Positions 2,181-30,390 of a stretch of 42,870 nucleotides of DNA are shown one piece after another (position 1 is the stretch's first letter; each line of letters begins with the position of its first letter). The translations under genes were made by a program, and so were the position numbers. The stretch comes from an uncultured Ruminococcus sp. Lineage in GTDB: Bacteria; Bacillota; Clostridia; Oscillospirales; Acutalibacteraceae. The stretch lies in assembly GCA_902765625.1 (NCBI GenBank), contig CACXAO010000011.1:1-42870 (forward strand). The letters are read 5' to 3'. Under the pieces are notes generated by a model. That model saw only the letters and a list, made by a program, of their open reading frames with translations, did not search any database and had not been told where the DNA came from.

Positions 2181-2505
2181 GTTGGTAGTTGGTAGTTGGC
2201 AGTTGGTAGTTGGCAGTTGGTAGTTGGTGGTTGGTGGTTGGTGGTTGGCAGTTGGCAGTTGGTAGTTATTAGTTGGTAGTTGATAGTTGGTGGTTGGTGG
2301 TTGGTAGTTGGCAGTTGGCAGTTGTTAGTTGGTGGTTGGTGGTTGGTGGTTGGTGGTTGGCAGTTGGTGGTTTTTAGTTGGTAGTTGATAGTTGGTAGTT
2401 GGAAGAGCAAAAATATAAATCGGGTGCGGGCAGAGCCCGCCATTCACTCCACTCTCAACTCTCCACTCTCCACTCTCAACTCTCCACTCTCAACTCTCAA
2501 CTCTC
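2181..2505. repeat. Heptanucleotide-array element, long GTTGGTA arm plus core hairpin plus CAACTCT arm
   Basis: About 30 consecutive, degenerate 7-bp units (GTTGGTA, GTTGGTG, GTTGGCA and variants) run from 2181 to about 2404. A core follows (about 2412-2443) with ATCGGGTGCGGGC, an AGA loop and GCCCGCCATT. A second arm of the other type (CTCAACT, CTCCACT units) fills about 2444-2505, up to the stop codon of the CotH gene. This explains nearly all of the gap 2090-2505. The open frame across it is a by-product of the repeat and is not called as a gene. Confidence 0.9.
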
Positions 2506-4320
2506 TTAATACTTAAATACTTTTCCTATGTTCCCTGCGTAGCCGTCGTTGCAGATCTCGGCGAGGCTTTGCTGGATTTTTGTCGCTTCGGTTATGTCAA
2601 TCGCGCCGTCTGCGTTGATGTCGGCAACCGCCTTAATCTTGTCGTCTGCAACCGCGAGGTCGGCCGCGATTTTCTGGATCTCCGTTGCGTCGTCTACCGT
2701 GATTGCTCCGTCGAGGTTGGCGTCGCCCACCTTCAATTCAACAGCGTCGCCGTCCTTTGGAATCTCGATCGAATAATCCTGCGGCTCGAGCTGACTTGTT
2801 ACGTCGGGAGTGACGAGCTTTACCTTTACATTCTCCGTCACCATCCAGCCGGGAAGTTCTATGCTGTAGCTGTAGTTTTTGCGCGAGGTGTATTTCCAGA
2901 CGTTTTCCGCGTCGGAAAGCGTCAAGGTCTTTTTGAAATACATCGGTTCCTCCGCGTAAAGCTCAACGGTCAGATCCTTAACGCTGCTTGTGTTCAGGAT
3001 ATCTACCGAGACACTGAGTTTATGCGGATCGTTCAGCCTCTGGCTGAAGGTTCTCACGTTGACTCCGTAAACCGCAAGCGTATTGCCGAGCCACGCGTTA
3101 TGCTCGCGGTACCAGTTTTTCAGGAAGCTGACGTTTTCGTCAAAGGTGGGTTCGGGTGTGCGCATCTGAATCGTGTAGCGCTTGCTCACATCCCAGCCTG
3201 CCTCGTTGAAATTGCGGCTGAAAACGTCGCCGTACTTTGCGAGAAGCCCGTCGATCAGTCCGCCCTCGGAGTAGATGTTTTTGAAGAAGGCGTAGTGCTC
3301 GCTGTAGACCTTTCTTACGTCCTCGCGGAACTCGTTCCTCATCATCAGGTGATAGAACAGGTTGGTGTAGGCGGTGTAGAGTCTGTCGGGCGTTGAGGCG
3401 TGCTCATATGACTTTGACGAGCTTGCGTTTACGTTGCCCGAGGCGAGGTCGTAGTCCCACGGAGGTCCCGCGTAAAATACGCCGTCCTTATAATAATAGT
3501 ATACCGAGCTGTAGTTTGAGTCGACGTTCTTTACGAACTCGTTGACGAGATAAAGCTTTGCGAACGACTCGATGTTCGTTACCGACGCCATCGTTTCGTA
3601 ATTTTTGCTCAGAATGGCTGACGTGAGGGTGTCGACCTTCTCCTGAATATAAGCGAGCTGTTCCTCGTTAGGCTCCTCCGGCTCGCTGAGAGCAAAGCGG
3701 TAGCCGTTTGACTTGATATAGGTCACGCCCTCTTCGTCGCGGTTGTACTCGTACTCAATGAGGAAGTCCTTCATTCCGTTGTTGCTTTCGATGTCGATAT
3801 CGACCCTGTCCTTGCCCTCCTGAACAGGCTCCATCAGGGTGTAACAGCCCTTGAAAACGCCGTCGACCCACAGCTCGACGTACTTCTGGTTCGAGGTGTA
3901 GTCGATATCAAGCTCTCGGGCGATATCAAACGCGATGTAGTTGCGCATGAGGGTGGGGTCGAAGCAGTTCGCGAGAAGCGCCCACTTTTTGCCCTTGCCC
4001 ATGCCGAGCACGTCCTTTTTCTTTGCGAATTTGAATGTGAACGGCTTTTTCTCGGCAAGCGCGGTGCTGTTGCCGCGAACCTTGAAGCTCGCCTTGTCCT
4101 CGAGAACGCTGCCGTCCACGTCCTCGATCTTTACGCTTGCGCCGACGTAGCCGTCAGCCTTGACAATACTGTTGCCGTTGCCCTCGTCGGTGGTGACGTA
4201 GACTCTCGGAACGGTGAGTTCTCCGTTTTCCGCCTCTCCGTTTTCCGCTGCGTTTACCTGAATGCAAAAGAGACCCGCAAACACCGCGGCGCAGAGCAGC
4301 ATAGAAATAATTTTTTTCAT
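2506..4320 (-). CDS. Secreted CotH-kinase-family protein with C-terminal type I dockerin
   Basis: 604 residues. A signal peptide covers about 1-25 (MKKIISMLLCAAVFAGLFC). A CotH-like domain (about 35-400) contains RNYIAFDIA (about 126-134), an ELWVDGVFKGCYTLMEPV segment and GPPWDYD (about 285-291), the acidic motif expected to bind metal. CotH of Bacillus spores is an atypical protein kinase. A linker or beta domain follows, then a dockerin (about 531-595) with two calcium loops, DANLDGAITVDD and DINADGAIDITE; the second has Glu where Asp is usual. Dockerins bind cohesins, so the protein is probably exported and docked on a cellulosome-type scaffold or the cell surface. ATG 4320 is preferred over ATG 4329 because the AGGAG site abuts the latter. 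Kinase activity is an inference. Confidence 0.88.
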   Translation of the reverse strand: MKKIISMLLCAAVFAGLFCIQVNAAENGEAENGELTVPRVYVTTDEGNGNSIVKADGYVGASVKIEDVDGSVLEDKASFKVRGNSTALAEKKPFTFKFAKKKDVLGMGKGKKWALLANCFDPTLMRNYIAFDIARELDIDYTSNQKYVELWVDGVFKGCYTLMEPVQEGKDRVDIDIESNNGMKDFLIEYEYNRDEEGVTYIKSNGYRFALSEPEEPNEEQLAYIQEKVDTLTSAILSKNYETMASVTNIESFAKLYLVNEFVKNVDSNYSSVYYYYKDGVFYAGPPWDYDLASGNVNASSSKSYEHASTPDRLYTAYTNLFYHLMMRNEFREDVRKVYSEHYAFFKNIYSEGGLIDGLLAKYGDVFSRNFNEAGWDVSKRYTIQMRTPEPTFDENVSFLKNWYREHNAWLGNTLAVYGVNVRTFSQRLNDPHKLSVSVDILNTSSVKDLTVELYAEEPMYFKKTLTLSDAENVWKYTSRKNYSYSIELPGWMVTENVKVKLVTPDVTSQLEPQDYSIEIPKDGDAVELKVGDANLDGAITVDDATEIQKIAADLAVADDKIKAVADINADGAIDITEATKIQQSLAEICNDGYAGNIGKVFKY

Positions 4321-4334
4321 CTTAAACATCTCCT

Positions 4335-4366
4335 AAACAGAAAGGGCTGCCGCGCGGACAACCCTT
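4335..4366 (-). terminator. Terminator after guaB
   Basis: Read on the minus strand, AAGGGTTG pairs with CAGCCCTT around a nine-base loop, about 40 bases past the guaB stop. The T-rich tail is weak on this strand (TCTGTTT). On the plus strand the same hairpin is followed by ATTTTTTT, but no plus-strand gene is there to use it. Confidence 0.6.
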
Positions 4367-4406
4367 ATTTTTTTGCATAGTATCAAACACGTTTCAAAAG
4401 CGGTGC

Positions 4407-5950
<1,544 letters not shown>

Positions 5951-6040
5951 TACGTATTTTTTATTTCCAATCGATTAATTATTGCTTTTGACAGACCGTC
6001 GCCGTCGTAACATCATCTGATATAAAAGTATCATCTCACG

Positions 6041-6168
6041 AAACCACCCTTCCGACTCTGCATAAATGCCGAGCCACCTCCCCTCAAGGGGAGGCTTTAA
6101 AAGAAACCACCCTTCCGACTTGGCATAAATGCCGAGCCACCTCTCCTCGAAGGGGAGGCTTTAATAGA
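6041..6168. repeat. Two tandem REP-like palindromic units
   Basis: Two direct copies of about 62 bases: 6041-6102 and 6104-6168. Each reads AAACCACCCTTCCGACT, then a GCATAAATGCCGAGCCACCT stretch, then a hairpin of the form CCCCTcaaGGGG followed by AGGCTTTAA. Copy 2 has changed bases in the hairpin. The same unit occurs in reverse orientation at 862-905. This is the main content of the gap 5889-6225, together with the guaB promoter and the next terminator; no gene is seen. Confidence 0.8.
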
Positions 6169-6182
6169 AACCGCTGACCGCC

Positions 6183-6211
6183 AAAAAAAACAGGAGCCCT
6201 TGCGGACTCCC
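6183..6211 (-). terminator. Terminator of the yfhO-type gene
   Basis: On the minus strand GGGAGTCC, loop GCAA, GGGCTCCT, then GTTTTTTTT. The stem has two G-T pairs. It starts about 15 bases past the stop codon. Confidence 0.85.
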
Positions 6212-6225
6212 GTTGATTTAATCGT

Positions 6226-9024
6226 TTAATTTTCATCCATACCGTCGAGCTGCGACTTATACACAGGGTCGGGTATGATCTTTTTCTTTAGCACGTACGT
6301 CAGCACGCAGGCTGCGGCAAACAGGAACGCGCAGATCATCGATATCGCGAAGCCCGGCCAGAAGCCGTTGGGATAATACGTCAGCTTTATCTCGTGCTCG
6401 CCTGCCTCAAGCGGGAATGCGAGAAGCGAATTGCCTACGGGTGTGATCTCGACCTTCTCGCCGTCGACGGTTGCCGTCCAGCCCTTTTCGTACGGGATTG
6501 AGGTGTAGAACAGACCCTTTTCCTTTACGCTGATCTTACCCTGCATGGAGCTTGAGGTGCACTTCTCGGTTTCCATAACGCTCTCGCTGAGCTTTGCGTA
6601 GCCCTTCTCGAACACGTCCTTGTTGAGCATATTTACATATACTCTCGCAGTGCCGCTCACGCCTGCCTTGAGGTCGGCGTATACGGAGATCTTGTCGCCC
6701 TTGTTGAAGTAGCCGATGCACGCTACGTATGAACGCGCCATGCCGTACTTTGCGGACTGCGCAACGTCGTTCTGCATTACGGTCACGTCGTCGCCGTTCT
6801 GAATGTCGGCGTACATCATATAAAGACCCTCTTCGGGAGCCTCGTAGTTCCACTTTACGTGGGGTGTGACCGCTGTGTCGATGCAGCTGTAGTTGTAAAA
6901 ACCGTATTCCTTTTTGGTAACGGTAAATTTATCCGCCTCGGTGTGACCCTGAGATACGACCTCGAGTCTTGTATATACGTCCTCGTTTAAGCCGGTGGCG
7001 TACTTAAAGAACTCGTTCTGCTTCTCAAACGGATTGAACTGATCCTCGTTGTCGTTCTCCTGCCAGTTCTGAAGCGCGGAGTTCGTCATGAAGCCCATCG
7101 GGATATAGTGGGTGTTCTGGAACAGCTTTACGCTGCCGGACTCGGTGACGAGATTGTCGCCCGACGACCTTACAGGAACCAGATCGTAGGTATTGTTCAC
7201 CTTGCCGCTGCGCGAGATGATATACTTGAGATTCATGAACATATTCGTTACGGGCGAGCCTTCGGCGTAGGTGTAACGGTTGCCGCTCTTCCAGCCCATC
7301 ATTCCGAAGTTCTCAAAGAAACGCGTCATGTTCTCGTTCGCCATCGAGTTGAACATCGAAAGACCGTGGTAGTGGTTGAGAGCGCCGTCGTTGAGGGTCT
7401 GGGTAGTTGCCGTCTCGGCGCGCCACAGCTCCTTGGTATCAGCCTCGAGCTCGTTCATTGACTCGATAACTGTCGCGGTGTTCTCGCCGCCGCGCGGATA
7501 TTCGTAGGTTGTGGTGACGGTGGTGCGGTTAACGCCGAGGTAAGCGGTAACGCCGCTCTGAGCGATCGTGACAATCAAAAGCGCCAAAACCATTATATTT
7601 TTCGGAATGACCCGTTTGGTGTACAGTATCACGACTACCGAGATAAAGATAACGAGCGCTCCGATCGCGATCAGGTTGGGGATCTCCCAGTCGGGATGGT
7701 CGGTGAACATCTTTTCAGCGCCGGGGTCGCCCACAGTGAGCAGAACGACCGCGATGCTCATTGCCGAGGCGATCAGCGCACCGACAACGCTTATCGAATC
7801 AATTGTCGTAAACGCGCGGAAAGCCATTACGATCATGATGAAGCTGATGAGGAAGCTGAAACGATAGGGGATCATGTTTGTAAAGTGGAAGCCGTGCCAG
7901 ATGTAGTCGAGCTGACGGATGATGCAGCTGAGGAACATAAAGACGATCATTACCACGTTTACGATTTTTTCTCTCAGGCGGATCTTCGGGCTTGTCAGAG
8001 AGAGGAAGCCGAAGAACATTGCGAACGCCGAGCACGAAATATTCGGCAGAGCGTCGGCAGCCTTGTTGGCAGCGCAGGTGAAGTTCGCGAAGCTGCCCGT
8101 TATGCTCTTGAGAGCGCGGAGCACGCCGAGAAGATCGTTGGAACCGCCGATGTTTATCGCGAATGATGTCGGGAAGGTGCTGCCTGAGGCGTGGGTATTT
8201 TTGAGCGCCATGAACGCAGGCAGCAGGAAGAAGGTTGTAAGACCGATAGCGATCATCGAGAAAATGCCGGTCTTGAGCAGGTTGATAAAGAAATTCTTTA
8301 CTCCGCTCCAGTAAACGATTGAGTAGCCGATAAAAATCAGCAGCACAAAGATACATACGAACAAGCCGATGTAGTAGTTCATGATCAGCGCAAGCGCAAG
8401 GCTTACGGTGAACAGACGGAAGCGGTTCTCGGTGAGCAGCTTGACCGTGCCGAGCGCGACGAGAGGAGTAATGCAGACCGTGTCCATCCAGATTGTGTTC
8501 CAGTAGTAGCCCATAAAGTAGGCGCAGAACGAGAAGCAGCAGGCGAACATGATAAGCGAAACGTCGTTGCGCTTGTAGACGCTCTTTAAGAAGTAGGCGG
8601 TAAACGCGCCGCCGAGAGCGATTTTGAGAGCTACGGAGAACATCAAAAACTCGCGCAGCCAGTCGGCAGGTATGAACACCGACAGGAAGTTTACGGGACT
8701 TGCGAGGTAGTAGGACATCAGCGAGAAGTAGTTGACTCCTCCGCCCACAGACCATGTCCAGAAGAAGGATTCGCCGTGCTGCAGCTTATACTGGAAGTCG
8801 GCGAGGAAGGGATAATACTGATGCCACAGGTCGGTAACAAGAATCTGCTTGTCGCCAAAGGGTGAAACGCTCATAAGAGCAAAGGCGGTTACCATCAGGA
8901 CAAAGGGTACCAGAAACGACAGCCATATAAACCGGTTGCGATACGCAAATTCGGTGAAGCTCCGTTTCTTTTTCTCATTGTCCGGATTGTTAGGAACCGC
9001 CGTTTTCGTTGATAAAACGGGCAT
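6226..9024 (-). CDS. YfhO-family multi-pass membrane protein (probable GT-C glycosyltransferase)
   Basis: 932 residues. The N-terminal two thirds has about a dozen hydrophobic segments, beginning with FIWLSFLVPFVLMVTAF. The first outer loop carries DLWHQYYPF, the acidic/aromatic motif characteristic of the YfhO family. A large soluble region of about 350 residues follows, with the typical YEKGWTATVDG segment, and a final membrane helix closes the protein. YfhO proteins (and Listeria GtlB) are thought to transfer a sugar from a polyprenyl-phosphate donor to teichoic acid outside the membrane. The divergent neighbour at 9176 encodes the enzyme class expected to make that donor, which supports the role. 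Start ATG 9024 has GGAGG upstream. Sugar and acceptor are unknown. Confidence 0.87.
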   Translation of the reverse strand: MPVLSTKTAVPNNPDNEKKKRSFTEFAYRNRFIWLSFLVPFVLMVTAFALMSVSPFGDKQILVTDLWHQYYPFLADFQYKLQHGESFFWTWSVGGGVNYFSLMSYYLASPVNFLSVFIPADWLREFLMFSVALKIALGGAFTAYFLKSVYKRNDVSLIMFACCFSFCAYFMGYYWNTIWMDTVCITPLVALGTVKLLTENRFRLFTVSLALALIMNYYIGLFVCIFVLLIFIGYSIVYWSGVKNFFINLLKTGIFSMIAIGLTTFFLLPAFMALKNTHASGSTFPTSFAINIGGSNDLLGVLRALKSITGSFANFTCAANKAADALPNISCSAFAMFFGFLSLTSPKIRLREKIVNVVMIVFMFLSCIIRQLDYIWHGFHFTNMIPYRFSFLISFIMIVMAFRAFTTIDSISVVGALIASAMSIAVVLLTVGDPGAEKMFTDHPDWEIPNLIAIGALVIFISVVVILYTKRVIPKNIMVLALLIVTIAQSGVTAYLGVNRTTVTTTYEYPRGGENTATVIESMNELEADTKELWRAETATTQTLNDGALNHYHGLSMFNSMANENMTRFFENFGMMGWKSGNRYTYAEGSPVTNMFMNLKYIISRSGKVNNTYDLVPVRSSGDNLVTESGSVKLFQNTHYIPMGFMTNSALQNWQENDNEDQFNPFEKQNEFFKYATGLNEDVYTRLEVVSQGHTEADKFTVTKKEYGFYNYSCIDTAVTPHVKWNYEAPEEGLYMMYADIQNGDDVTVMQNDVAQSAKYGMARSYVACIGYFNKGDKISVYADLKAGVSGTARVYVNMLNKDVFEKGYAKLSESVMETEKCTSSSMQGKISVKEKGLFYTSIPYEKGWTATVDGEKVEITPVGNSLLAFPLEAGEHEIKLTYYPNGFWPGFAISMICAFLFAAACVLTYVLKKKIIPDPVYKSQLDGMDEN

Positions 9025-9111
9025 GTTTTTTGAACCTCCATATTAAATTTTTGCTAACCATTTTATTGTAACACGTTTTTTGTCCGAGGTAAATATTTTT
9101 TTTGAAATTTG

Positions 9112-9141
9112 TTGGACTTTTCGGTTATTGTTTGGTATAAT
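9112..9141 (+). promoter_or_regulatory. Promoter of the GT2 glycosyltransferase gene
   Basis: TATAAT (9136-9141) preceded by TGG forms an extended -10. TTGGAC (9112-9117) is an acceptable -35 with an 18-base spacer. A weaker minus-strand pair (TTTACC, 17 bases, TACAAT) in the same gap could serve the divergent yfhO-type gene. Confidence 0.6.
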
Positions 9142-9175
9142 ATTTTTCGATATATATACGAAAGGTTCTATTCAT

Positions 9176-10126
9176 ATGAAAACTATTGATTTGGTAGTAC
9201 CATGCTTTAACGAGGAAGAAGGTCTTGAGCACTTTGTTACCGAGACAAACAAGGTCATCGACACCCTGCCCGGATACTCCTTCCGCTATATTCTTGTAAA
9301 CGACGGCAGCAAGGACAAAACGTATCTCGTTATGAAACGCCTTGCCGCGAAATTTGATAATATAAAATACATCTCCTTTTCGCGCAACTTCGGCAAGGAG
9401 GCGGCTATGTACGCCGGACTGCAGCACTGCGACGCCGACTATGTTGTCGTTATGGACGCGGACTTGCAGCATCCGCCGGCGGTGTTTCCGCAGATGCTCG
9501 AGGCTATGGAGGAAGGCTGGGACTGCTGCGCCACTAAGCGCGACGAACGCGAGGGCGAAAGCTTTTTCAGAGGTGCGTTCTCAAAGCTGTTCTTCCGTCT
9601 TTCGAACCGCATGACCGACGTCAAGAATCCGTACGGCGCGATGGACTACCGCATGATGACAAGACAGATGGTCAACTCTATTCTCGAGCTCAGCGAGGTT
9701 CAGAGGTTTTCGAAGGGTATCTTCTCGTGGGTCGGCTTCAATACGAAGTGGATCACCTTCAAGACGGTTGACCGCGAGCTCGGCAAGTCGTCGTGGAAAT
9801 TCTCGTCGCTCTTCAAATACGCAATCGACGGAATAACCTGCTTCTCGGTAACTCCGCTTCGGTTTACGGCGGTCATGGGTGCGATCATCTTTTTCCTCTC
9901 CCTCATCTACATCATGGTGACGCTCATCCAGACGATCTTCTTCGGAATCCAGACTCCCGGTTACGTTACCACGCTCTGCGCGGTTCTGTTCCTCGGAGGA
10001 CTGACGGAGATGTCCATCGGCATTCTCGGCGAGTACATCGGCAGGATATATATGGAAACAAAGGACAGACCCATCTACATTACCAAGTTCTCAAACTTTG
10101 AGGACGAGGACTACGAAGAAAAATAA
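9176..10126 (+). CDS. CsbB/GtrB-type polyprenyl-phosphate glycosyltransferase (GT2)
   Basis: 316 residues. The GT-A fold domain starts with TIDLVVPCFNEEEGL, has LVNDGSKDKT (about 41-49) and the DAD metal motif in VVMDADLQHPP (about 94-96). Two C-terminal membrane helices (about 235-260 and 270-295) end in GEYIGRIYMETKDRP, the hallmark of the CsbB/GtrB/DPM1-like family. These enzymes load a sugar onto undecaprenyl phosphate on the inner membrane face. The divergent yfhO-type gene is the likely partner that uses the product. ATG 9176 is chosen because the promoter at 9112-9141 would start transcription downstream of any longer in-frame start. The Shine-Dalgarno (GAAAGG) is modest. Confidence 0.9.
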   Translation: MKTIDLVVPCFNEEEGLEHFVTETNKVIDTLPGYSFRYILVNDGSKDKTYLVMKRLAAKFDNIKYISFSRNFGKEAAMYAGLQHCDADYVVVMDADLQHPPAVFPQMLEAMEEGWDCCATKRDEREGESFFRGAFSKLFFRLSNRMTDVKNPYGAMDYRMMTRQMVNSILELSEVQRFSKGIFSWVGFNTKWITFKTVDRELGKSSWKFSSLFKYAIDGITCFSVTPLRFTAVMGAIIFFLSLIYIMVTLIQTIFFGIQTPGYVTTLCAVLFLGGLTEMSIGILGEYIGRIYMETKDRPIYITKFSNFEDEDYEEK

Positions 10127-10136
10127 CAGTTCCGCT

Positions 10137-10267
10137 TAACTGCCAACTAAAAAACTACCAACAAAAAAACTACCAACTATCAACTAAAAACTACCAACTA
10201 AAAAACTACCAACTACCAACTAAAAAACTACCAACTAAACAACTACCAACTAAACAACTACCAACTA
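10137..10267. repeat. Heptanucleotide array, single arm (ACTACCA units)
   Basis: Degenerate AACTACC units, many spaced by AAAAA or AAACA, run from just after the glycosyltransferase stop to the terminator. Only one arm is present: there is no GTTGGTA arm and no GC-rich core. Confidence 0.85.
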
Positions 10268-10302
10268 AAAAAGGCAATGACGCAATGTCACTGCCTTTTT
10301 GT
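10266..10302. terminator. Bidirectional terminator between converging genes
   Basis: AAAAAAGGCA pairs with TGCCTTTTT, with an inner TGAC/GTCA stem. It carries an A tract on one side and a T tract on the other, so it can end both the plus-strand glycosyltransferase transcript and the minus-strand parA-parB-serS transcript. Confidence 0.85.
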
Positions 10303-10311
10303 TTTACCCAA

Positions 10312-10779
10312 TCAATAGCCCTGAAAAGCTCGTTTGACAGCGTCTATAACATTTATTCCGTTTGCTGTCATGATTATGATTGCGATTACCGCGATGATTA
10401 TGCTTATAAGTGTAAGAACAAGCTGTGCTCTCGCCCATGTTACAAGCGAGCGTTTGCTGCTGCCGCCGAAGCCCCAGACGAGCAGCAGGATGATGTTGAG
10501 GATAGGGATGCACATCAATACCCATCTGCCTATCCAGCCCCATGTTGAAACGTGCTCGTCGGGATGATAACCTAGTCTTGACGCCGAGCTGTCAACATAT
10601 ACGGGAACGGGCTGCTGATAAACAGGCTGCTGATACGACTGACGCTCGTTTCTCTGAGCATGACGGGCGTTGTTGTAGCTGTCGCCGTAGTTGTTGTTCT
10701 TATTCTCTCTGAGTGGAGTGCCGCAGCTGTTGCAGAAATCGGGGTCGGTCACGGGCGCTCCGCAGTTCGGACAAGTCAT
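10312..10779 (-). CDS. Zinc-ribbon membrane protein of unknown function
   Basis: 155 residues. The N-terminus is a zinc ribbon, CPNCGAPVTDPDFCNSCGTPL (two CxxC pairs, residues 3-24). A polar Gln/Asn/Tyr-rich linker follows (about 25-75). Two hydrophobic segments come next, VLMCIPILNIILLLVWGF and LVLTLISIIIAVIAIIIM. The topology suggests a cytoplasmic ribbon and tail anchored in the membrane. It begins 12 bases after serS with a strong AAGGAGGAG site, so it is last in the parA-parB-serS operon. This zinc-ribbon plus membrane architecture is common in Clostridia, but no function is known to me. Confidence 0.8.
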   Translation of the reverse strand: MTCPNCGAPVTDPDFCNSCGTPLRENKNNNYGDSYNNARHAQRNERQSYQQPVYQQPVPVYVDSSASRLGYHPDEHVSTWGWIGRWVLMCIPILNIILLLVWGFGGSSKRSLVTWARAQLVLTLISIIIAVIAIIIMTANGINVIDAVKRAFQGY

Positions 10780-10791
10780 AGATTCTCCTCC

Positions 10792-12072
10792 TTACTTACC
10801 GATAACTTCCTTGCCGCCCATGTAGGGTCTGAGAGCGACGGGAATACGGACAGAACCGTCCTCGTTGAGGTTGTTCTCGAGGAAGGCGATGAGCATTCTC
10901 GGAGGAGCCACAACGGTGTTGTTGAGGGTGTGTGCAAAGTACTTTCCGCCCTTGCCGCTTACGCGGATCTTGAGGCGGCGTGCCTGAGCGTCGCCGAGGT
11001 TTGAGCAGGAACCGACCTCGAAATACTTCTTCTGACGGGGTGACCATGCCTCAACGTCGAGCGAACGAACCTTGAGGTCTGCGAGGTCGCCCGAGCAGCA
11101 TTCGAGCGTGCGGACGGGAATGTCCATTGAACGGAAGAGGTCGACGGTGTTCTGCCAGAGCTTGTCGAACCACATCTTGCTCTCCTCGGGCTTGCAGACG
11201 ACGATCATCTCCTGCTTTTCGAACTGGTGGATTCTGTAAACGCCTCTCTCCTCAATGCCGTGAGCGCCCTTCTCCTTGCGGAAACAGGGTGAGTAGCTGG
11301 TGAGGGTCTGCGGCAGGGTATCTTCGGGATTGATGGTGTCGATGAACTTGCCGATCATCGAGTGCTCCGAGGTGCCGATGAGGTATAAGTCCTCGCCCTC
11401 GATCTTGTACATCATGGAGTCCATCTCGGCGAAGCTCATAACGCCGGTTACAACGTTTGAACGGATCATGAACGGCGGTACGCAGTAGGTGAAGCCGCGG
11501 TCGATCATGAAATCGCGCGCATAGGAGATAACCGCGCTGTGAAGTCTCGCGATGTCGCCCATCAGATAATAGAAGCCGTTGCCTGCAACCTTTCGCGCTG
11601 AGTCAAAGTCGATGCCGTTGAGATTCTCCATGATGTCGGTGTGATAAGGAACCTCGAAGTCGGGCACAAACGGTTCGCCGTAGCGCTCGATCTCAACGTT
11701 CTCGCTGTCGTCCTTACCGATCGGAACGGACGGGTCGATGATCTGCGGAATGGTCATCATTATCTCGGTGACCTTTGAGCTGAGCTCGGCTTCCTTCTGC
11801 TCAAGCTCCTCGAGGAGATCAGCCTGCTTTGTTACCTGCTCCCTGATAGCCATGGCTTCTTCCTTCTTGCCCTGATGCATCAGCGCGCCGATCTGCTTTG
11901 AGATCTTGTTGCGGTTTGCGCGAAGATCGTCAGCCTGCTGCTTTACTGCGCGGCTTTCGGCGTCGAGCTTGATAACCTCGTCAACAAGAGGAAGCTTGCT
12001 GTCCTGAAACTTCTTCTTGATATTTTCTTTTACCGCGTCGGGATTTTCTCTTAAAAATTTAATGTCAATCAT
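10792..12072 (-). CDS. serS: Seryl-tRNA synthetase
   Basis: 426 residues, standard length. It charges tRNA-Ser (and tRNA-Sec where present) in the cytoplasm. The N-terminal coiled-coil arm (about 30-100) is followed by the class II core: motif 2 FRKEKGAHG...RIHQFEKQEM, the serine-site segment VGSCSNLGDAQARR, and motif 3 with LNNTVVAPPRML. The start ATG 12072 overlaps the end of parB by 8 bases, so translation is probably coupled. I see no T-box leader, which agrees with an internal operon position. Confidence 0.97.
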   Translation of the reverse strand: MIDIKFLRENPDAVKENIKKKFQDSKLPLVDEVIKLDAESRAVKQQADDLRANRNKISKQIGALMHQGKKEEAMAIREQVTKQADLLEELEQKEAELSSKVTEIMMTIPQIIDPSVPIGKDDSENVEIERYGEPFVPDFEVPYHTDIMENLNGIDFDSARKVAGNGFYYLMGDIARLHSAVISYARDFMIDRGFTYCVPPFMIRSNVVTGVMSFAEMDSMMYKIEGEDLYLIGTSEHSMIGKFIDTINPEDTLPQTLTSYSPCFRKEKGAHGIEERGVYRIHQFEKQEMIVVCKPEESKMWFDKLWQNTVDLFRSMDIPVRTLECCSGDLADLKVRSLDVEAWSPRQKKYFEVGSCSNLGDAQARRLKIRVSGKGGKYFAHTLNNTVVAPPRMLIAFLENNLNEDGSVRIPVALRPYMGGKEVIGK

Positions 12073-21591: not shown

Positions 21592-21632
21592 ACTTAAAAC
21601 CCTCCCTTCAAAATATAACCTTGCAATATAGC

Positions 21633-21779: not shown

Positions 21780-21812
21780 CCGCTTTTGCGATGTTTTACG
21801 TCAAAAACCGCG

Positions 21813-21821
21813 TTTTCCACA
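21813..21821 (+). other. DnaA-box match 2
   Basis: TTTTCCACA fits TTWTNCACA, in the same orientation and exactly 42 bases (four helical turns) from match 1. A weaker TTTTCCATA lies two bases further on. Confidence 0.6.
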
Positions 21822-21853
21822 TTTTTCCATACTCACAGGTTAATAATTTAACA

Positions 21854-21960
21854 AGTTGGTAGTGGTTAGTGGGTAGTTGGTAGTTGGCAGTTGAATATAA
21901 ATCGGGTGCGGGCAGCGCCCGCCATTAACTACCAACTAATAACTACTAACTACCAACTAT
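21854..21960. repeat. Heptanucleotide element with both arms, upstream of dnaA
   Basis: The left arm has GTTGGTA-type units (21854-21893). The core (21894-21926) has ATCGGGT then GCGGGC-AGC-GCCCGC then CATT. The right arm has complementary ACTACCA units (21927-21960). The two arms can pair, making a cruciform or long hairpin. It sits between the DnaA boxes and the dnaA promoter. Confidence 0.92.
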
Positions 21961-22004
21961 ATATAATAGTATACGGAACTTGAAAACCGCTCTGCTTAAA
22001 ATAC

Positions 22005-22033
22005 TTGCAATTTCCGAACAGAAGTTGTATAAT
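22005..22033 (+). promoter_or_regulatory. Promoter of dnaA
   Basis: TTGCAA (22005-22010), 17 bases, TATAAT (22028-22033). Transcription from here gives a leader of about 180 bases before dnaA. Confidence 0.75.
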
Positions 22034-22084
22034 AAAAGAGAATGAATATTAATGTGGGGAAATTTGCGAAATGAGTAGAACAGA

Positions 22085-22194
22085 GAGAATTTTCCGACGT
22101 TTTTGTGCCCGAACAGCTTTTCGGACACGGAATAATTTTTCGCTTGCAGAGCCGATAAACACCGTTTTTTCGGCATACCGGCAGTCGGATTCTC
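22085..22194 (+). promoter_or_regulatory. Structured dnaA leader with terminator-like hairpin
   Basis: GAGAAT (22085-22090) can pair with ATTCTC (22189-22194), closing a domain that contains two hairpins. The first pairs TTCCG (22092-22096) with CGGAA (22128-22132), has an inner GTGcCCGAA/TTCGGaCAC stem, and is followed at once by TAATTTTT, which looks like an intrinsic terminator. The second is GCCGA/TCGGC. A regulatory role is inferred from structure only. Confidence 0.4.
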
Positions 22195-22222
22195 CCCTAT
22201 AGGAAAGGAAAGACAAAAGCTT

Positions 22223-23545
<1,323 letters not shown>

Positions 23546-23562
23546 CGTATACTAATATATAT

Positions 23563-23650
23563 AGTAGTTAGTAGTTGGTAGTTGGTAGTTTAATAGAAAT
23601 CGGGTGCGGGTGTCCCGCCATTACTACCAACTAAAAAACTACCAACTCTC
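23563..23650. repeat. Heptanucleotide element with both arms, downstream of dnaA
   Basis: The left arm is GTAGTTA/GTTGGTA units (about 23563-23591). The core has AATCGGGT then GCGGG-TGT-CCCGC then CATT. The right arm is ACTACCA units (about 23623-23650). The core stem differs from the 21.9-kb copy by loss of one whole C-G pair and a changed loop, so pairing is preserved. Confidence 0.9.
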
Positions 23651-23816
23651 ATACATTTCCACTCACATTCACATCACAGAAAAGCTTCAACTTTGGGCGT
23701 TGAAGTAAAAGTGGAAATCACCTGACACACACAAACACTTCACACGCATTTCACAGTGGAAGTATTTTCCGCTTCGGAATCGCGAATATCGCACTTTTTC
23801 TATATTTTAACACTGC

Positions 23817-23848
23817 CTACTACTACTACGAAAAATAATAAAGAATTA
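23817..23848 (+). other. DnaA-trio-like tract and AT-rich unwinding region
   Basis: CTACTACTACTAC (23817-23829) is followed by GAAAAATAATAAAGAATTAG, about 40 bases before dnaN. In Bacillus subtilis a CTACTATTACT-type tract in the same place and orientation forms the DnaA-trios where the helix opens. Confidence 0.6.
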
Positions 23849-23868
23849 GATTGGAGAGGAATCCACCA

Positions 23869-24975
23869 ATGAAAATTTCCTGCCTGCGTTCGGATCTGCA
23901 GACCGCTATCTCGAACGTATCCAGAGCGGTGTCAGCCAAATCAACCATTCCTGCTCTCGAGGGCGTGCTTGTTAAGGCATACGGAGATAAGCTCAACATC
24001 TCGGGCTACAATCTCGAAATCGGAATCACCACCGACATAGACGCTACAATCAAGGAGGAAGGCGAGATCGTTATTAGCTCAAGACTGTTCTTTGACATCG
24101 TGCGCAACCTCCCCGAGGAAATCCTCACGATTGAAACAGACGACAGACTTGTTATATACATCAACTGCGGCGCAGCCGACTACAAGATCACGGGCATGTC
24201 CTCGGTCGAGTACCCCGACCTGCCCACCTTTGAGCAGACCGACGGCATCACCCTCGATTCAAAGACTCTGCGCGAAATGATCCGTCAGACTGTTTACGCC
24301 GTAAGCGAAAACACCGCGAAACCCATCTACACAGGCTCGCTCTACGAGATAGAAAACTCCGTTCTCACGATTGTGGCTATCGACGGCTACCGCATGGCAG
24401 TACGCAGAGAGAACGTTCAGAGCGACAGCGAGACCTCGTTCATCGTGCCCGGCAAAACCCAGCTCGAGATACTCAAGCTGCTTTCGGACGACGAGGAACC
24501 CGTTGAGATCATCATCGGTCAGCGCCACATCACCTTCAAGGTCAAGAACTACAGGGTTATTTCGCGCCTTATCGAGGGTATTTTTATCGACTACAAAACT
24601 ACGATCCCGGCAGTCGCAAAGACCGAGGTCGTTATCAACGTAAAGAGACTGATCAATTCGGTCGAGAGAATGTCGCTTATGAATAACGAGAGAATGCAGA
24701 GTCCCGTTCGCTGCAAGTTTCTCGGCGACGAAATCAAATTTTCATGCGCGTCCGCGGTCGGTTCCGCGAGCGACACTATCGGCGTGACTATCGCCGGCGA
24801 GAACGTGGAGATCGGCTTCAACAACAGATACATGCTCGACGCTCTCAAAAACGCCGACACCGACGAGGTTAGGCTTGAGCTAAACGGCCCGATATCGCCC
24901 ATCGTTATCAAGCCCGTTCAGGGAGATAACTTCGTGAGCATCGTAGTTCCCATGAGGTTGGCAAATGAAGGCTGA
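23869..24975 (+). CDS. dnaN: DNA polymerase III beta subunit (sliding clamp)
   Basis: 368 residues, three repeated clamp domains. The start [24 protein letters not shown] is typical, and so is the C-terminal [10 protein letters not shown], near the peptide-binding pocket. The clamp encircles DNA and tethers polymerase and repair proteins. ATG 23869 follows GGAGAGG at about 10 bases; an in-frame TTG further upstream overlaps that site. The 3' end overlaps rlbA by 11 bases. Confidence 0.98.
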
Positions 24976-25180
24976 AATCCTTAAAATAGACACGGAGTTC
25001 ATCCGCCTGCAGGATCTGCTCAAGCTCTCGGGTCTTGCCGCGACGGGCGGAATGGCAAAAATCGTCATTCAGAACGGCGAGGTAAAGGTTAACGGCGAGG
25101 TCTGCACCATGCGCGGCAAAAAGCTGCGCGGCGGCGATACCGCCGAGTACGACGGAGCGACAGTTAAAGTAGAGTTATGA
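24965..25180 (+). CDS. rlbA: S4-domain RNA-binding protein of the YaaA/RlbA type
   Basis: 71 residues, nearly all one S4 fold: [36 protein letters not shown] followed by RGKKLRGGD. This small protein lies between dnaN and recF in most Firmicutes and has been linked to ribosome assembly. It overlaps dnaN by 11 bases and recF by 4, so dnaN-rlbA-recF is a coupled unit. Confidence 0.93.
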
Positions 25181-26292
25181 GGGTAGAGAGCATATCCTTC
25201 AAAAATTACCGCAATCTCGCGGAACAGACGCTCGACCCCTGCGACGGCGTCAACATAATCTACGGCAACAACGCGCAGGGCAAGACGAATATTATCGAGG
25301 CGCTGTGGCTGTTCTGCGGCGGTCATTCGTTCCGCACCCAGAGCTACAGGGAGCTTATCGCATTCGGCGAAAGCTTCGCTCACCTCGAATGCGCCTTTTT
25401 CGGTCAGGACAGACGTCAGACCGCAAGCATCACCATTGAGCCTTCAAAGAGGCTGATAAAAATCAACGGAGTCGAGAAAAAGACCTCGGCTGCGCTTATA
25501 GAAAAATTCTGCGCGGTTGTGTTTTCGCCCGAAAACCTCAGCCTGATAAAACGCGGACCTGCCGAAAGGCGCAGCTTTATCGACAGCGCAATCTGCCGCG
25601 AAAAGCTCAGGAACGCGCTTACCCTCCAGAGGTACAACCGCCTGTTAAAGCAGCGAAACGCGCTGCTCAAGGAGATAGTGAAGAACGAGTCGCTTCGCTC
25701 AACCCTGAATCTCTGGGACGAGCAGCTCACAACCCTCGGCGCAGAGATAGTCAGGCAGCGGCTCGACTTTACAAGGATGATCTCCGAGAAAGCGGCTGTC
25801 TTTCATAAGGGGATATCGCGCGGCAGCGAAACGCTGAGCCTGCGCTATGTATCGAGCTTCGGCGCTGAGGAGGGCGACTCAAGAGCAGCGCTTAAACAAA
25901 AGTTCCTCGAAAAATGTGCCGCGAATTATCAAAACGAAATCTTCACCGGTTCGACCGCCTCGGGCGCTCACCGCGACGATATAGAAATACTCATCAACGG
26001 CAAAAACTCACGCTTCTTTGCCTCTCAGGGTCAGCAGCGCAGCGCCGTGTTGTCCTTAAAGCTCGCCGAAGCGTCGGTTCTCCGCGAGAGAATGGGCGAG
26101 AACCCCGTTATTTTATTCGACGACGTGCTCTCGGAGCTTGATAACGACCGTCAGGATTATCTCTTAAACGAGCTGAAGGGCTGTCAGGTTTTCATCACCT
26201 GCTGTGAAAAATCCAACAAGGAACAGCTCAGCGAGGGCAAGGTCTTTTACGTAGAGGAAGGCAGGGTCGATGAACTGAGAGTTCAGAGTTGA
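25177..26292 (+). CDS. recF: DNA replication and repair protein RecF
   Basis: 371 residues. The N-terminal [14 protein letters not shown] is followed by Walker [10 protein letters not shown] (about 30-38), the ABC-type signature region [16 protein letters not shown], and Walker [13 protein letters not shown]. It loads RecA at gaps with RecO and RecR. The last residues (LRVQS) and the stop codon are written in AGAGTTC/AGAGTTG heptamers, so the neighbouring repeat has run into the 3' end of the gene and may have changed its C-terminus. Confidence 0.97.
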
Positions 26293-26491
26293 GAGTTGAG
26301 ATAGCAGTTATCAGCACCCGATTAAAAATCTTACGCTCTTAACTGCCAACTACCAACTAAAAACTACCAACTACCAACAAAAAAACTACCAACTAAAAAC
26401 TGCCAACTACCAACTACCCAACTACCAACTACCAACTACCCAACTACCAACTACCCAACTACCCAACTACCAACTACCCAACTACCAACTA
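26275..26491. repeat. Heptanucleotide element between recF and remB
   Basis: The left arm is AGAGTTG units beginning inside the recF stop region (26275-26302). A degraded core in reverse orientation contains ATCAGCACCCGATT. The right arm is a long run of ACTACCA and ACTACCCA units (26340-26491) that ends three bases before the remB ATG. It is a mixed element (arm types differ), as at 2.2-2.5 kb. Confidence 0.9.
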
Positions 26492-26493
26492 AA

Positions 26494-26748
26494 ATGTACT
26501 TACATCTTGGAAACGACGTTGTAATCAAAACAGAAAATATAATCGCCGTATGCGACCTCGACGCCTGCACGGTTTCAAAAAAGACGAGGGATTTTCTCTC
26601 GCTCGCCCAAAAGCGCGGAGAGGTAATAAACGTGTCCTACGAGCTGCCAAAGTCGTTCGTGGTATGCGTTGAGCGCGGCGTCAGGAAGGTATATATCTCT
26701 CAGCTCTCGGTAAAGACCCTGAGCAGGAGAGAGCTGAAATTTCATTAA
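26494..26748 (+). CDS. remB: RemB-type DUF370 regulator (YaaB)
   Basis: 84 residues, beginning MYLHLGNDVVIKTENIIAV and containing PKSFVVCVERGVRKVYIS, typical of the DUF370/RemB family. In Bacillus, remB lies between recF and gyrB, as here, and its relative RemA is a DNA-binding activator of matrix genes. There is no recognisable Shine-Dalgarno: the heptamer array runs to within three bases of the ATG. Translation must be SD-independent or start by another route. Confidence 0.9.
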   Translation: MYLHLGNDVVIKTENIIAVCDLDACTVSKKTRDFLSLAQKRGEVINVSYELPKSFVVCVERGVRKVYISQLSVKTLSRRELKFH

Positions 26749-26762
26749 AACGGAGTAATCAT

Positions 26763-27487
26763 ATGAAGAAAAAGAAATGTCCATACTGCGGCAGAAGAGT
26801 GCCTTATTCCGTCGCTTTCAGCAGAAGAAGAAAAGCAGAATACGTCTGCAAAAACTGCGGCAGAGAGAGCCGCGTCGTGATAAAACGTTCGGTAATTCTT
26901 GCGTTTTTGATCTGTGCCATCATCTCGATCGCGATTTTCGTACTCTGGGTCTACCTCAAGCTCACCTACAATCCGCTGGGCATTGTGGCTATCGCGATTC
27001 CGCTTATTATTTTCACAATCATTTCTCCTAAGTTCGTCCGCTTTGAGGCGCTCAAAAAATACAAAAAGACGATGGAGGCAAAGAAGGCAGGCATAGCCTA
27101 CTCCGACAACCTCTCCGTTTCCGAGATCGACAACGAGTTCAGCGGTCTTGACAGCGGCAGCAGGTTCAGCATCAACTCCGACATTTTCAACCAGATAAAA
27201 GCCGAGCGCACCACCGCAAAGGAGCAGGCTGAAAACAACGAGATCTCATCGACCTCAAACGAAATCGATAATTCCTACGTTCATGTTATAGACGACGTAA
27301 GCGAGCAGCATTCGGTAGACGAGGCTCCGCTCAAGAAGCTCCATTCCGAGGGCAGCCGCGTTAACCGCCACTACATCAGTCCTCCGGTTCAGGAAGAGCA
27401 GCCGATCCCCGTTTACGAGGAGGTCGAGGACGACGTGAAGGAATACAAGCCCGACGGCAACAAGTATTCCGCAAACAGAAGGTTTTA

Positions 27488-27488
<1 letters not shown>
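26763..27488 (+). CDS. Zinc-ribbon membrane protein of unknown function
   Basis: 241 residues. A zinc ribbon (CPYCGRR, residues 6-12, and CKNCGRES, about 29-36) is followed by two hydrophobic helices, VILAFLICAIISIAIFVLWVYL (about 43-64) and LGIVAIAIPLIIFTII (about 71-87). A long hydrophilic, acidic C-terminal half (about 100-241, rich in Glu, Asp and Ser) looks disordered and cytoplasmic. It starts 14 bases after remB and shares one base with the next gene, so it is in the remB-gyrB unit. I do not recognise a function. Confidence 0.8.
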
Positions 27489-29775
<2,287 letters not shown>

Positions 29776-29807
29776 GAGAATAACGATTTGCAGTCAGGAG
29801 GGAAACC

Positions 29808-30239
29808 ATGCATTCCAGAACATATATCACCGTAAGATACGCCGAAACCGACAGAATGGGCATTGCCCATCACGCCAATTTTCCGATCTGGTTCGAAATC
29901 GGCAGAACCGACTTTATACGCCTTTTCGACACCACCTACACCGAGATGGAGAAGTCAGGCATTATGACTCCCGTCCGCAATCTTTCGGCGCACTACATTC
30001 TGCCGGCGCAGTACGAGGATAAGCTGGTTATCCGCACCTGGTGCACCCACTTATCAGCCGCGAGAATCGAGTTCTCGTACACCGTAAAGCGAATCAATGC
30101 CGACGACACCCAGACGGAGCTTGCCTACGGAAGCACGGAGCACGGCTTTGTTGACGCAAAAACCTTCCGTCCCTGCAACTCCAAAAAGCGTATGCCTGAG
30201 CTTTACGAAAAGATGAATCAGAATATCAAGATTTTATAA
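29808..30239 (+). CDS. Acyl-CoA thioesterase, hotdog fold (YbgC/4HBT-like)
   Basis: 143 residues. The motif RYAETDRMGIAHHANFPIWFEIGR (residues about 9-32) is the 4HBT active-site segment, with the catalytic Asp in ETD. It probably hydrolyses an acyl-CoA thioester in the cytoplasm; the substrate is unknown. AGGAGGG lies just before ATG 29808. It sits between gyrB and gyrA, an unusual insertion in the gyrB-gyrA pair. Confidence 0.85.
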   Translation: MHSRTYITVRYAETDRMGIAHHANFPIWFEIGRTDFIRLFDTTYTEMEKSGIMTPVRNLSAHYILPAQYEDKLVIRTWCTHLSAARIEFSYTVKRINADDTQTELAYGSTEHGFVDAKTFRPCNSKKRMPELYEKMNQNIKIL

Positions 30240-30390
30240 GAGAGTTAAGAGTGAAGAGTTAAGAGAGGAACCGCCGCCGCGCAGACAGCGCGCATTAATC
30301 GGAAAAATCGGTTCCCGGCTGAATTGATATTATTTTCAGAGCACTCTCCGCTTACAAAATTCAACTCTCCACTCTCAACACTCCACTCTA
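30239..30390. repeat. Heptanucleotide element, AGAGTTA/CAACTCT type, between the thioesterase gene and gyrA
   Basis: The left arm is AGAGTTA and AGAGTGA units (30239-30268). The middle is different from the other copies, with GCGCGC-containing and ATCGG stretches that can form hairpins. The right arm is CAACTCT, CCACTCT units (about 30361-30390). It ends just before the gyrA ribosome site (AGAGG). Confidence 0.8.

What the first reader, a model, noticed from the sequence alone, without database searches (positions are those of the whole stretch)
2181..30390. A dispersed family of heptanucleotide-array elements with a conserved core hairpin, concentrated around oriC
Seen: six intergenic loci (2181-2505, 10137-10267, 21854-21960, 23563-23650, 26275-26491, 30239-30390) are built from 7-bp units, either GTTGGTA/ACTACCA or AGAGTTG/CAACTCT. 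Several share a core ATCGGGTGCGGGC...GCCCGCCATT. Arms flank the core in inverse orientation, so the element can fold into a long hairpin. Arm types can be mixed (2.2 kb, 26.3 kb), as if arms recombine. Four of the six lie between rpmH and gyrA. A 7-bp period matches neither codons nor the helical repeat, which argues against a coding role. I know of no named element with this plan. Inference: a mobile or self-expanding repeat, or a nucleoid/RNA-structure element.
Basis: seen in the sequence. Interest (0 to 1): 0.75.

Follow-up and report, generated by a model that had tools for sequence, protein, structure and literature searches.

The report
Hairpin repeats with seven-base arms
The window carries members of a large, apparently unnamed family of short intergenic DNA elements, a conserved hairpin flanked by inverted arms of about 32 bases made of seven-base repeats, spread patchily through gut Ruminococcus-like bacteria, and they offer a concrete handle on why seven-base repeats are so common between bacterial genes.

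Summary
All six loci are 7-bp arrays: three have the exact core, one a remnant, one another cap, one none. Local slippage alone is excluded. The core occurs 14 times in this genome, in 19 of 59 other congeners, and 4-47 times in each of 19 Ruminococcus-type MAGs. A stem pair left free in the search covaries (143 of 148 listed matches Watson-Crick, three pair types). Arms have a standard size, commonest 32 nt; 14 of 48 paired arms span 120-126 bp. Around one core, 74 arms show 45 heptads, homogeneous within an arm. Similar inverted arms surround other caps in other families. Concentration at oriC is not supported. Rejected: Rho loading sites (no Rho in 22 of 22 carriers), stop-codon cassettes, RAYT-driven REPINs. 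Best reading: a non-autonomous REPIN/MITE-like mobile palindrome whose arms also slip. The mover is unknown, and no clean empty site was found. Inverted pairs of about four or five heptads are in print for Xanthomonas (PMC4692102) and Geobacter (PMC2700814); the hairpin-cored element was not found in print. SPADE (PMC6344855) calls heptamer abundance unexplained.

The parts
2179..2405 (+). left arm, about 32 units of TAGTTGG type (expanded)
2419..2444 (+). core hairpin ATCGGGTGCGGGCAGAGCCCGCCATT
2447..2505 (+). right arm of a different heptad (CTCAACT/CTCCACT)
10138..10269 (+). single-armed AACTACC/AACTAAA array without core, after the stop codon of ORF 9080-10126 and before what looks by eye like a terminator hairpin
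21854..21893 (+). left arm (AGTTGGT) of the element upstream of dnaA
21901..21926 (+). core hairpin (CAGCG loop form)
   Evidence: RNA fold of 21854-21960 z -6.17
21927..21959 (+). right arm (AACTACC type)
23562..23590 (+). left arm between dnaA and dnaN
23599..23622 (+). core hairpin (TGT loop form)
   Evidence: RNA fold of 23563-23650 z -4.57
23623..23650 (+). right arm (ACTACCAACT...)
26278..26301 (+). AGAGTTG arm that overlaps the 3' end of recF; the recF ORF (25177-26292) stops inside it
26314..26323 (-). remnant of the core (GCACCCGATT = AATCGGGTGC reversed)
26341..26491 (+). AACTACC arm running up to an ATG
30240..30266 (+). AGAGTTA/AGAGTGA arm abutting the stop codon of ORF 29808-30239
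30267..30360 (+). different cap, no canonical core
30361..30389 (+). right arm (CTCTCCA type), just before gyrA (30406)

Best explanation
These are copies of a non-autonomous, palindromic, dispersed mobile element. The standard full form, seen in related genomes, is about 120-126 bp: a ~32-nt 5' arm of about 4.5 heptads, a ~57-nt cap with two small hairpins (the right one being AATCGGGTG + stem + CC), and a ~32-nt 3' arm with heptads complementary to the first. Half-elements (right hairpin plus right arm only) and longer composites also occur. Shown: dispersed copies, patchy distribution among congeners, covarying hairpin, near-constant arm length and fixed register, inverted arms, lineage-specific presence, heptad copy number that changes between close relatives. 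Inferred: that the hairpin is what a trans-acting enzyme recognises on single-stranded DNA; that arms then slip by 7-nt units (strongly so in this species, up to 588 bp); that host selection confines copies to intergenic spots, mostly at gene 3' ends. The mobilising enzyme is not identified, and the usual Y1/RAYT transposase is not supported.
For: No core in the dnaA spacers of 29 other relatives' loci, as far as they reach. Structure: with one stem pair left free, 143 of 148 listed matches are Watson-Crick (C-G 108, A-T 19, T-A 16), 3 T-G, 2 C-A; 87.2 expected if the sides were independent. Anatomy: 285 period-7 runs against at most 30 for any other period 4-12 in 112 loci; neighbouring runs in the order 5' arm then 3' arm 48 times, the reverse 5, same-type 17, ambiguous 16; run lengths 29-34 nt in 128 of 285, commonest 32; 14 of 48 pairs span 120-126 bp. 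Same intergenic site with opposite core orientation and other arms in related species: L138/L212 and L136/L172. Heptad number differs at 3 of 6 arrays compared between two close relatives, with one 57-bp difference of a hairpin plus a 31-nt arm. 78 cores placed in spacers: 54 tandem, 18 convergent, 6 divergent, where spacers number 262, 87 and 77.
Against: No exact filled/empty site with a target-site duplication was found; the nearest case (L415/L131) can equally be a deletion between the two direct hairpin copies. Arm sequences vary far more than the terminal repeats of a normal MITE. No transposase is linked: Y1 is absent from this genome and from 8 of 19 carriers, and no core lies in any of the 30 Y1 loci (4 of them show a heptad run). 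Only 14 of 48 pairs have the standard total length (61-260 bp in all). Patchiness can also arise by loss. In this genome the copies sit on few contigs, which dispersal alone does not explain.
Confidence: 0.55

Rival explanations
1. Host-functional RNA element: a transcript end or stability element at gene 3' ends, with the long arm hairpin blocking exonucleases or terminating transcription on both strands.
For: Predicted RNA folds are strong: the 8 full-size copies I chose give z -4.8 to -8.3, window 21854-21960 z -6.2. Stem covariation with 3 T-G cells. Few in divergent spacers.
Against: No clear orientation preference in tandem spacers (33 opposite, 21 same). No U-tract seen in the copies read. 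No Rfam family at gathering score in the window. 40 of 59 other congeners lack the core. DNA cruciforms would show the same covariation. The mixed-arm 2396-2520 folds weakly (z -2.0), and in some best folds (e.g. L156, L196) the cap does not form the core hairpin.
Confidence: 0.17
2. Protein-binding iteron arrays: a DNA-binding protein reads boxes at 7-bp pitch, as RHH ParB (Omega) does on 7-bp parS repeats or as guessed for IHF/HU in Geobacter.
For: Arms tend to hold an A-N-T box at 7-nt pitch: ANT in the heptad consensus of 237 of 285 runs against 186 +/- 7 for shuffled letters, own genome 83 of 90 against 44, G283 54 of 55 against 27. Xanthomonas heptads GGGANTN keep the A and T too (PMC4692102). 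Omega binds contiguous 7-bp WATCACW repeats, four needed for full activity (PMC9499535 passages). Geobacter class-3 sites: five tandem heptanucleotides (PMC2700814 passages).
Against: 45 distinct heptads in 74 arms, several within one genome, leave only a 3-bp box to recognise. ANT is not enriched in G319 (18 of 35 against 18.6) and only marginally in G206 and G307. WATCACW itself occurs once in 1 of 97 arms. It does not explain why spacers are alike within an arm.
Confidence: 0.13
3. Plain microsatellite slippage: heptanucleotide arrays arise locally and the hairpins are incidental.
For: 3 of 6 arrays compared between close relatives differ in length, by 7, 14 and 44 nt. Simple heptad arrays without a cap exist elsewhere, e.g. 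A. baumannii CP040048 and K. variicola CP133157. Own arrays reach 588 bp.
Against: Dispersed identical core, fixed register 3 nt after CCCGCC, commonest length 32 nt, paired inverted arms, covarying stem.
Confidence: 0.07
4. REPIN mobilised by a REP-associated Y1 transposase (RAYT).
For: Inverted hairpin doublets, intergenic, high copy. Y1 matches occur in 11 of 19 carriers, and 4 of 30 Y1 loci have a heptad run near (L312, L317, L324, L333).
Against: Y1 is not found in this genome nor in 8 of 19 carriers, including one with 31 cores; 0 of 30 Y1 loci hold the core, and several show hairpins of their own.
Confidence: 0.05
5. Rho loading (rut) sites: G-poor, YC-rich 3' arms with YC every 7 nt.
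For: The 3' arm is 4.3% G and 27% C, with 5.8 YC per 32 nt.
Against: No Rho RNA-binding domain found in 22 of 22 core carriers including this genome, while the search finds it in 9 of 14 control genomes and in G283, G319, G307. The reversed arm has nearly as many YC (5.2).
Confidence: 0.01

Closest known systems
Xanthomonas GGGAATC / GGGANTN repeats (PMC4692102; passages and one section read)
   Same: Heptads with conserved A-N-T; most motifs have four units; 70 (Xcc) and 75 (Xac) cases of two sites in convergent orientation on opposite strands, noted as possible stem-loops or cruciforms; dispersed without origin preference; 89-93% intergenic, nearest the upstream gene's end, only 7-8% between divergent genes (here 6 of 78 placed cores).
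   Different: G-rich, studied as G-quadruplexes; one heptad family; no conserved hairpin core in what I read; not proposed as a mobile element in what I read.
Geobacter metallireducens class-3 'predicted global regulator binding sites' (PMC2700814; passages and supplement legends as printed in the main text, not the figures)
   Same: Five tandem heptanucleotides (consensus MTYCTGA) in 15 of 16 aligned sequences, drawn as looping from one strand to the other; the site classes are said to be mostly found in pairs.
   Different: No conserved hairpin core in the passages seen; read as IHF/HU sites; different heptad.
REP / REPIN (PMC3116915, passages)
   Same: Short hairpins, inverted doublets, intergenic, tens of copies, non-autonomous.
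   Different: Heptad arms; no associated RAYT found; hairpins seen beside Y1 genes here are of other sequence.
TAACTGA repeats of Beggiatoaceae, Cyanobacteria and Bacteroidetes (PMC4679880; abstract and one section); cyanobacterial STRR (recalled; mentioned in PMC4692102)
   Same: 7-bp tandem intergenic arrays; indels in 7-nt steps; patchy phylogeny; an A-N-T in the unit.
   Different: Direct repeats, only one indirect repeat in the Maribeggiatoa genome; no hairpin cap in what I read.
Omega/ParB parS heptads of pSM19035 (PMC9499535, passages)
   Same: Contiguous 7-bp repeats, direct or inverted, four or more.
   Different: Fixed consensus WATCACW, plasmid centromere.
MITEs (recalled definition)
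   Same: Small, non-autonomous, inverted ends, dispersed.
   Different: Terminal arms here are not sequence-conserved; no target duplication or parent transposon found.

Membership tests
REPIN/REP | Hairpin units in high copy, extragenic | tested here: met
   one search counts; 20 of 120 cores inside crude ORFs, most of the long ones just past an early start codon
REPIN/REP | Inverted doublet of two hairpin units | tested here: met
   inverted arms 48 against 5; two-hairpin cap in full-size copies; half-elements also exist
REPIN/REP | RAYT gene present and flanked by the element | tested here: not met
MITE | Conserved terminal inverted repeats | tested here: not met
   45 distinct heptad consensus in 74 arms
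MITE | Target-site duplication / clean empty site | tested here: inconclusive
   flanks too diverged, or alternative readings
MITE | Parent autonomous transposon with the same ends | not tested
   only Y1 was searched
Heptanucleotide SSR/VNTR | Tandem 7-bp units varying in copy number | tested here: met
Xanthomonas GGGANTN paired repeats | About four heptads, inverted pairs, intergenic | tested here: met
Xanthomonas GGGANTN paired repeats | G-rich unit GGGANTN | tested here: not met
   3' arms are 4.3% G and 27% C, heptads differ
Geobacter class-3 heptad sites | Five tandem heptads, paired | tested here: met
   about 4.5 units, inverted pairs
Geobacter class-3 heptad sites | Consensus MTYCTGA | tested here: not met
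Geobacter class-3 heptad sites | Bound by IHF/HU | not testable with these tools
   only suggested in the paper
Omega parS | WATCACW heptads | tested here: not met
   one occurrence in 1 of 97 arms
Rho rut site | Host encodes Rho | tested here: not met
   0 of 22 carriers
Rfam RNA family | Match at gathering score | tested here: not met
   window only

The most novel reading that the evidence does not exclude
A widespread, unrecognised class of bacterial element in which any of many heptads is laid down as a near-constant quantum of about 31-32 nt (about five boxes at 7-nt pitch) on both sides of exchangeable hairpin caps. The arms are then made by an iterative 7-nt copying step at the birth of each copy rather than inherited as a fixed sequence. 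This class would be the source of the unexplained excess of heptanucleotide repeats between prokaryotic genes, from Clostridia to Xanthomonas, Geobacter and cyanobacteria.
Probability: 0.23. Interest if true: 0.9.

Novelty: new variant of a known kind. Interest (0 to 1): 0.6.

Why it matters
[quoted passage not shown] Here many of them are not free arrays: they are the arms of a palindromic element with a standard arm length and a covarying hairpin, and the same inverted ~31-nt arm plan recurs round other caps in other families. Together with the paired heptads already in print for Xanthomonas and Geobacter, this turns an old statistical oddity into a physical object that can be searched for, typed, deleted and pulled down. 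If the arms are made anew at each insertion, an unknown 7-nt iterative copying step exists. At the least it gives a family of variable-number markers and a new repeat class for rumen and gut Ruminococcus genomics.

Tried and rejected
Stop codons in all three frames (7 being coprime to 3): 60 of 97 arms (first 28 nt) against 55.9 +/- 4.2 for column-shuffled heptads; composition explains it. Rho rut sites: refuted for these hosts by absence of Rho. RAYT/REPIN. Local hypervariability of arms: orthologous copies at 86-98% identity keep their heptads (L151/L217, L198/L216, L159/L197), so the diversity of arms between loci is not fast local turnover. Precise insertion boundaries from dnaA spacers (two relatives aligned): flanks too diverged. 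Gene order to test origin proximity: C11 and C17 map beside dnaA in a congener, but the other sampled contigs gave too few hits to say anything. Cyanobacterial plasmids as a comparison: 2 and 1 period-7 runs on two 50-kb stretches. Plasmid and phage collections (one query each): no record covers 80% of the query. One IMG/VR contig (L239) carries a right hairpin with a 32-nt arm; the other (L238) shows no array.

Rows dropped before counts: loci L126, L128, L168, L202, L211, L219, L230 (7 of 119) were left out because they show a lone chance core without arms in unrelated GC-rich or other-phylum DNA; for four of them I saw no record title. Searches kept them. One search held 21 genomes; the 2 with one chance core each (G169, G170) are not among the 19. 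Pattern counts include a few overlapping double matches of one place. In one search two such doubles were dropped, and only the matches listed could be counted. One search used L119-L198 only, because titles of later loci were not shown.

Full report
1. Check of the observation. All six places hold 7-bp arrays. Three hold the exact core (2419-2444, 21901-21926, 23599-23622). The 26.3-kb place holds only the 10-base remnant GCACCCGATT, the 30.2-kb place a different cap, and the 10.1-kb place one arm without a core. Mixed arm types at 2.2 kb and 26.3 kb are as described. dnaA (22223-23545), dnaN, recF, gyrB and gyrA are confirmed by NCBIfam. The recF ORF ends at 26292, inside the arm that starts at 26278, so that arm supplies the stop codon of the ORF as it stands.

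2. Own genome. The assembly is a 2.14-Mb draft in 93 contigs, 88.9% complete, 3.63% contaminated. With one stem pair left free the core occurs 14 times: C7 5, C10 2, C11 3, C17 3, C58 1. Density on C11, the origin contig, is like that on C17 and C7, so a concentration at oriC is not supported. Arrays are unevenly spread all the same. Of 18 contigs without listed AACTACC, AACTCTC or core matches (first 20 kb of each sampled), 17 show no period-7 run, the exception being C13, while most stretches of the 12 carrier contigs hold one to twelve (the list was cut at places with mismatches). Carrier contigs tend to higher GC. Whether this is regional or a mixed bin is open; could not decide it.

3. 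Relatives. Each of 19 such genomes holds 4-47 exact cores, none of the reversed pattern; the listed places lie on many contigs. In the genus, 20 of 60 genomes have it (this one and 19 of 59 others), with 0-40 copies. The stricter pattern ending in CATT was found in 1 of 150 family genomes, this one. Of 34 other genomes with a dnaA match, loci of 29 were fetched; none holds the core in the spacers beside dnaA, as far as the loci reach. One CGGGTGCGGG in L291 lies away from dnaA in what looks like coding sequence, five loci show a period-7 run somewhere, and one of these (L276) is a different 32-nt heptad array in the dnaA-dnaN spacer.

4. Anatomy. After CCCGCC come 3 nt, then a heptad array in fixed register: 97 of 127 flanks have lag-7 identity of 0.6 or more. 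The array is closely sized: of 97, the commonest lengths are 32 (24) and 33 (17), range 24-67. Its average unit is MAYYNTT, with 4.3% G. In 112 loci (786,636 bases) there are 285 period-7 runs and at most 30 of any other period from 4 to 12. Neighbouring runs stand as 5' arm then 3' arm 48 times, the other way 5, same type 17, ambiguous 16. Of the 48 pairs, 14 span 120-126 bp (range 61-260), which fits 32 + about 57 + 32. Left and right arms of one element are kin: mean score 15.9 against 9.07 +/- 0.66 when re-paired, reached by 0 of 5000 permutations, although an element's own partner is best or tied in only 6 of 48 rows. Many copies are half-elements or hold further hairpin modules between the arms: only 37 of 88 right arms find a clear partner within 160 nt upstream (12.5% expected from swapped arms).

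5. Hairpin. Loci found by the exact core cannot show covariation. In one search one pair was left free: 143 of the 148 listed matches are Watson-Crick (C-G 108, A-T 19 in five genomes, T-A 16 in six), 3 T-G, 2 C-A; 87.2 would be expected if the two sides were independent. Independently, 112 of 165 GGGTG-anchored stems are followed by a heptad tail, against 2 of 47, 2 of 34, 0 of 7, 1 of 20 and 3 of 53 for other anchors. The exact-core loci make up most of the 112; of the 36 stems that are neither CGGG nor CGGGC, 10 have the tail (one of them, L152, is an exact core with a longer stem). Whole elements fold well as RNA: the 8 full-size ones I chose give z -4.8 to -8.3; window 21854-21960 -6.2, 23563-23650 -4.6; the mixed-arm 2396-2520 only -2.0. 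In some best folds (L156, L196) the cap pairs otherwise than in the core hairpin. DNA cruciforms would give the same signal.

6. Arms. Around one core, 74 arms from 39 genomes show 45 consensus heptads. Identity is 0.793 between units of one arm, 0.578 between arms of one genome, 0.488 between genomes. Orthologous copies keep their heptads. Over about 64 kb aligned between two close relatives (G156 and G356, blocks 92-98% identical), 3 of 6 arrays compared differ in length, by 7, 14 and 44 nt, and one place differs by 57 bp, holding an extra hairpin copy and a single 31-nt AAATAAG arm; the same composite sits at a second G156 locus. That can be an insertion or a deletion between the two hairpin copies. 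At two homologous sites related species carry the core in opposite orientation with different arms; such pairs were found among loci chosen for having a core, so they do not prove hotspots.

7. Beyond the core. A general arm motif occurs in 14 of 149 genomes of the phylum; in some of these its reversed control is as frequent, as it must be for heptads that read alike when reversed. In four other genomes (G206, G283, G319, G307; stretches chosen for having the motif) heptad runs are again often 29-34 nt (7 of 16, 26 of 55, 15 of 35, 6 of 20), and many stand as inverted pairs round other caps. An A-N-T triplet is over-represented in unit consensus in the core loci (237 of 285 against 186 +/- 7), in the own genome (83 of 90 against 44) and in G283 (54 of 55 against 27), marginally in G206 and G307, and not in G319 (18 of 35 against 18.6).

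8. Gene context. Of 120 cores, 20 fell in crude ORFs, 78 could be placed in spacers and 22 could not. The 78 are 54 tandem, 18 convergent and 6 divergent, while all spacers of 30 bp or more number 262, 87 and 77; in tandem spacers 33 cores oppose and 21 follow the genes. Most long ORF overlaps put the core within some 50 nt of an early start codon.

9. Mechanism. Most likely a REPIN/MITE-like non-autonomous mobile palindrome whose arms also slip (0.55). Shown: dispersal, patchiness, structure, sizing, 7-nt instability. Inferred: mobilisation in trans and recognition of the hairpin. Tests against other readings: Y1 transposases not found in this genome and 8 of 19 carriers, and no core at any of 30 Y1 loci, though 4 of these have a heptad run near; no Rho in 22 carriers although controls respond; stop codons no more than composition gives; no Rfam match in the window.

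10. Known work. Searches of the paper library listed no description of this element; subscription papers are mostly missing from it, and Elhai 2008 on small dispersed repeats was not held (recalled only). Closest in print: Xanthomonas GGGANTN heptads (PMC4692102, passages and one section), mostly four units, with 70 and 75 convergent pairs on opposite strands, mostly near the end of the upstream gene, 7-8% between divergent genes, no origin preference; and Geobacter metallireducens class-3 sites, five tandem heptanucleotides, of site classes mostly found in pairs and suggested to bind IHF/HU (PMC2700814, passages). TAACTGA repeats (PMC4679880, abstract and one section) are direct arrays. SPADE states that heptamers are the most abundant tandem repeats between prokaryotic genes, without a clue to function (PMC6344855, passages and Discussion). 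REPINs: PMC3116915 (passages). Omega heptads: PMC9499535 (passages).

11. Verdict. A real, dispersed element family; a new variant of the short palindromic mobile-repeat kind. Its paired-heptad plan has precedents in Xanthomonas and Geobacter; the conserved covarying hairpin core, the many heptads round one core and the standard element were not found in print. The bold reading, a general class of sized heptad-armed elements behind the heptamer excess, is not excluded, gains from those precedents, and is testable.

Noticed in passing
own genome contigs C7, C10, C11, C17, C22, C26, C52, C57, C58, C64, C65, C77 against the others: Listed heptad arrays and cores are confined to these contigs (about 20% of the assembly), apart from an AAACTTA-type pair on C13; they tend to higher GC: either a regional concentration or a mixed bin.
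   Followed up: partly
own C10:35091-35678 (L085 15091-15678): Longest heptad run seen, 588 bp of AACTACC type.
   Followed up: no
window 6040-6172: Tandem pair of a 63-bp unit with a GGCATAAATGCC palindrome and a CCTCCCCTCGAAGGGGAGG hairpin, another dispersed-repeat candidate.
   Followed up: no
L223 (opposite L153's element), L180 4005-4247: A different palindromic repeat (TGTCATTGCGAGG...GTGGCAATCC type) sits at a homologous site or inside a heptad-armed element.
   Followed up: no
L201, L215 after the core: Runs of small hairpins spaced by ATATCACT/ATATCGCT in place of heptad arms.
   Followed up: no
G156 L415 6790-6900 and L418 800-930: Composite arm-hairpin-arm-hairpin with a duplicated 18-nt hairpin; the orthologous site of the L415 copy in G356 lacks the extra unit.
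   Followed up: partly
A. baumannii CP040048.1 near 605,890; K. variicola plasmid CP133157.1 near 133,050: Long uniform (CTCTGTT)n and (GATAATA)n arrays without a cap.
   Followed up: partly
L318, L326, L334 (Y1 transposase loci of G164): Y1 genes with strong 31-nt hairpins of their own near them, candidates for a separate REP/RAYT system.
   Followed up: no
L312, L317, L324, L333 (Y1 loci): A heptad run (in L324 an inverted pair) lies in the same fetched locus as a Y1 transposase match; 4 of 30 such loci, no core.
   Followed up: no
viral contig L239 (IMGVR_UViG_3300014043_000012), about 1270-1330: A right hairpin with a 32-nt arm on a predicted viral contig, a possible vehicle between genomes.
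   Followed up: no
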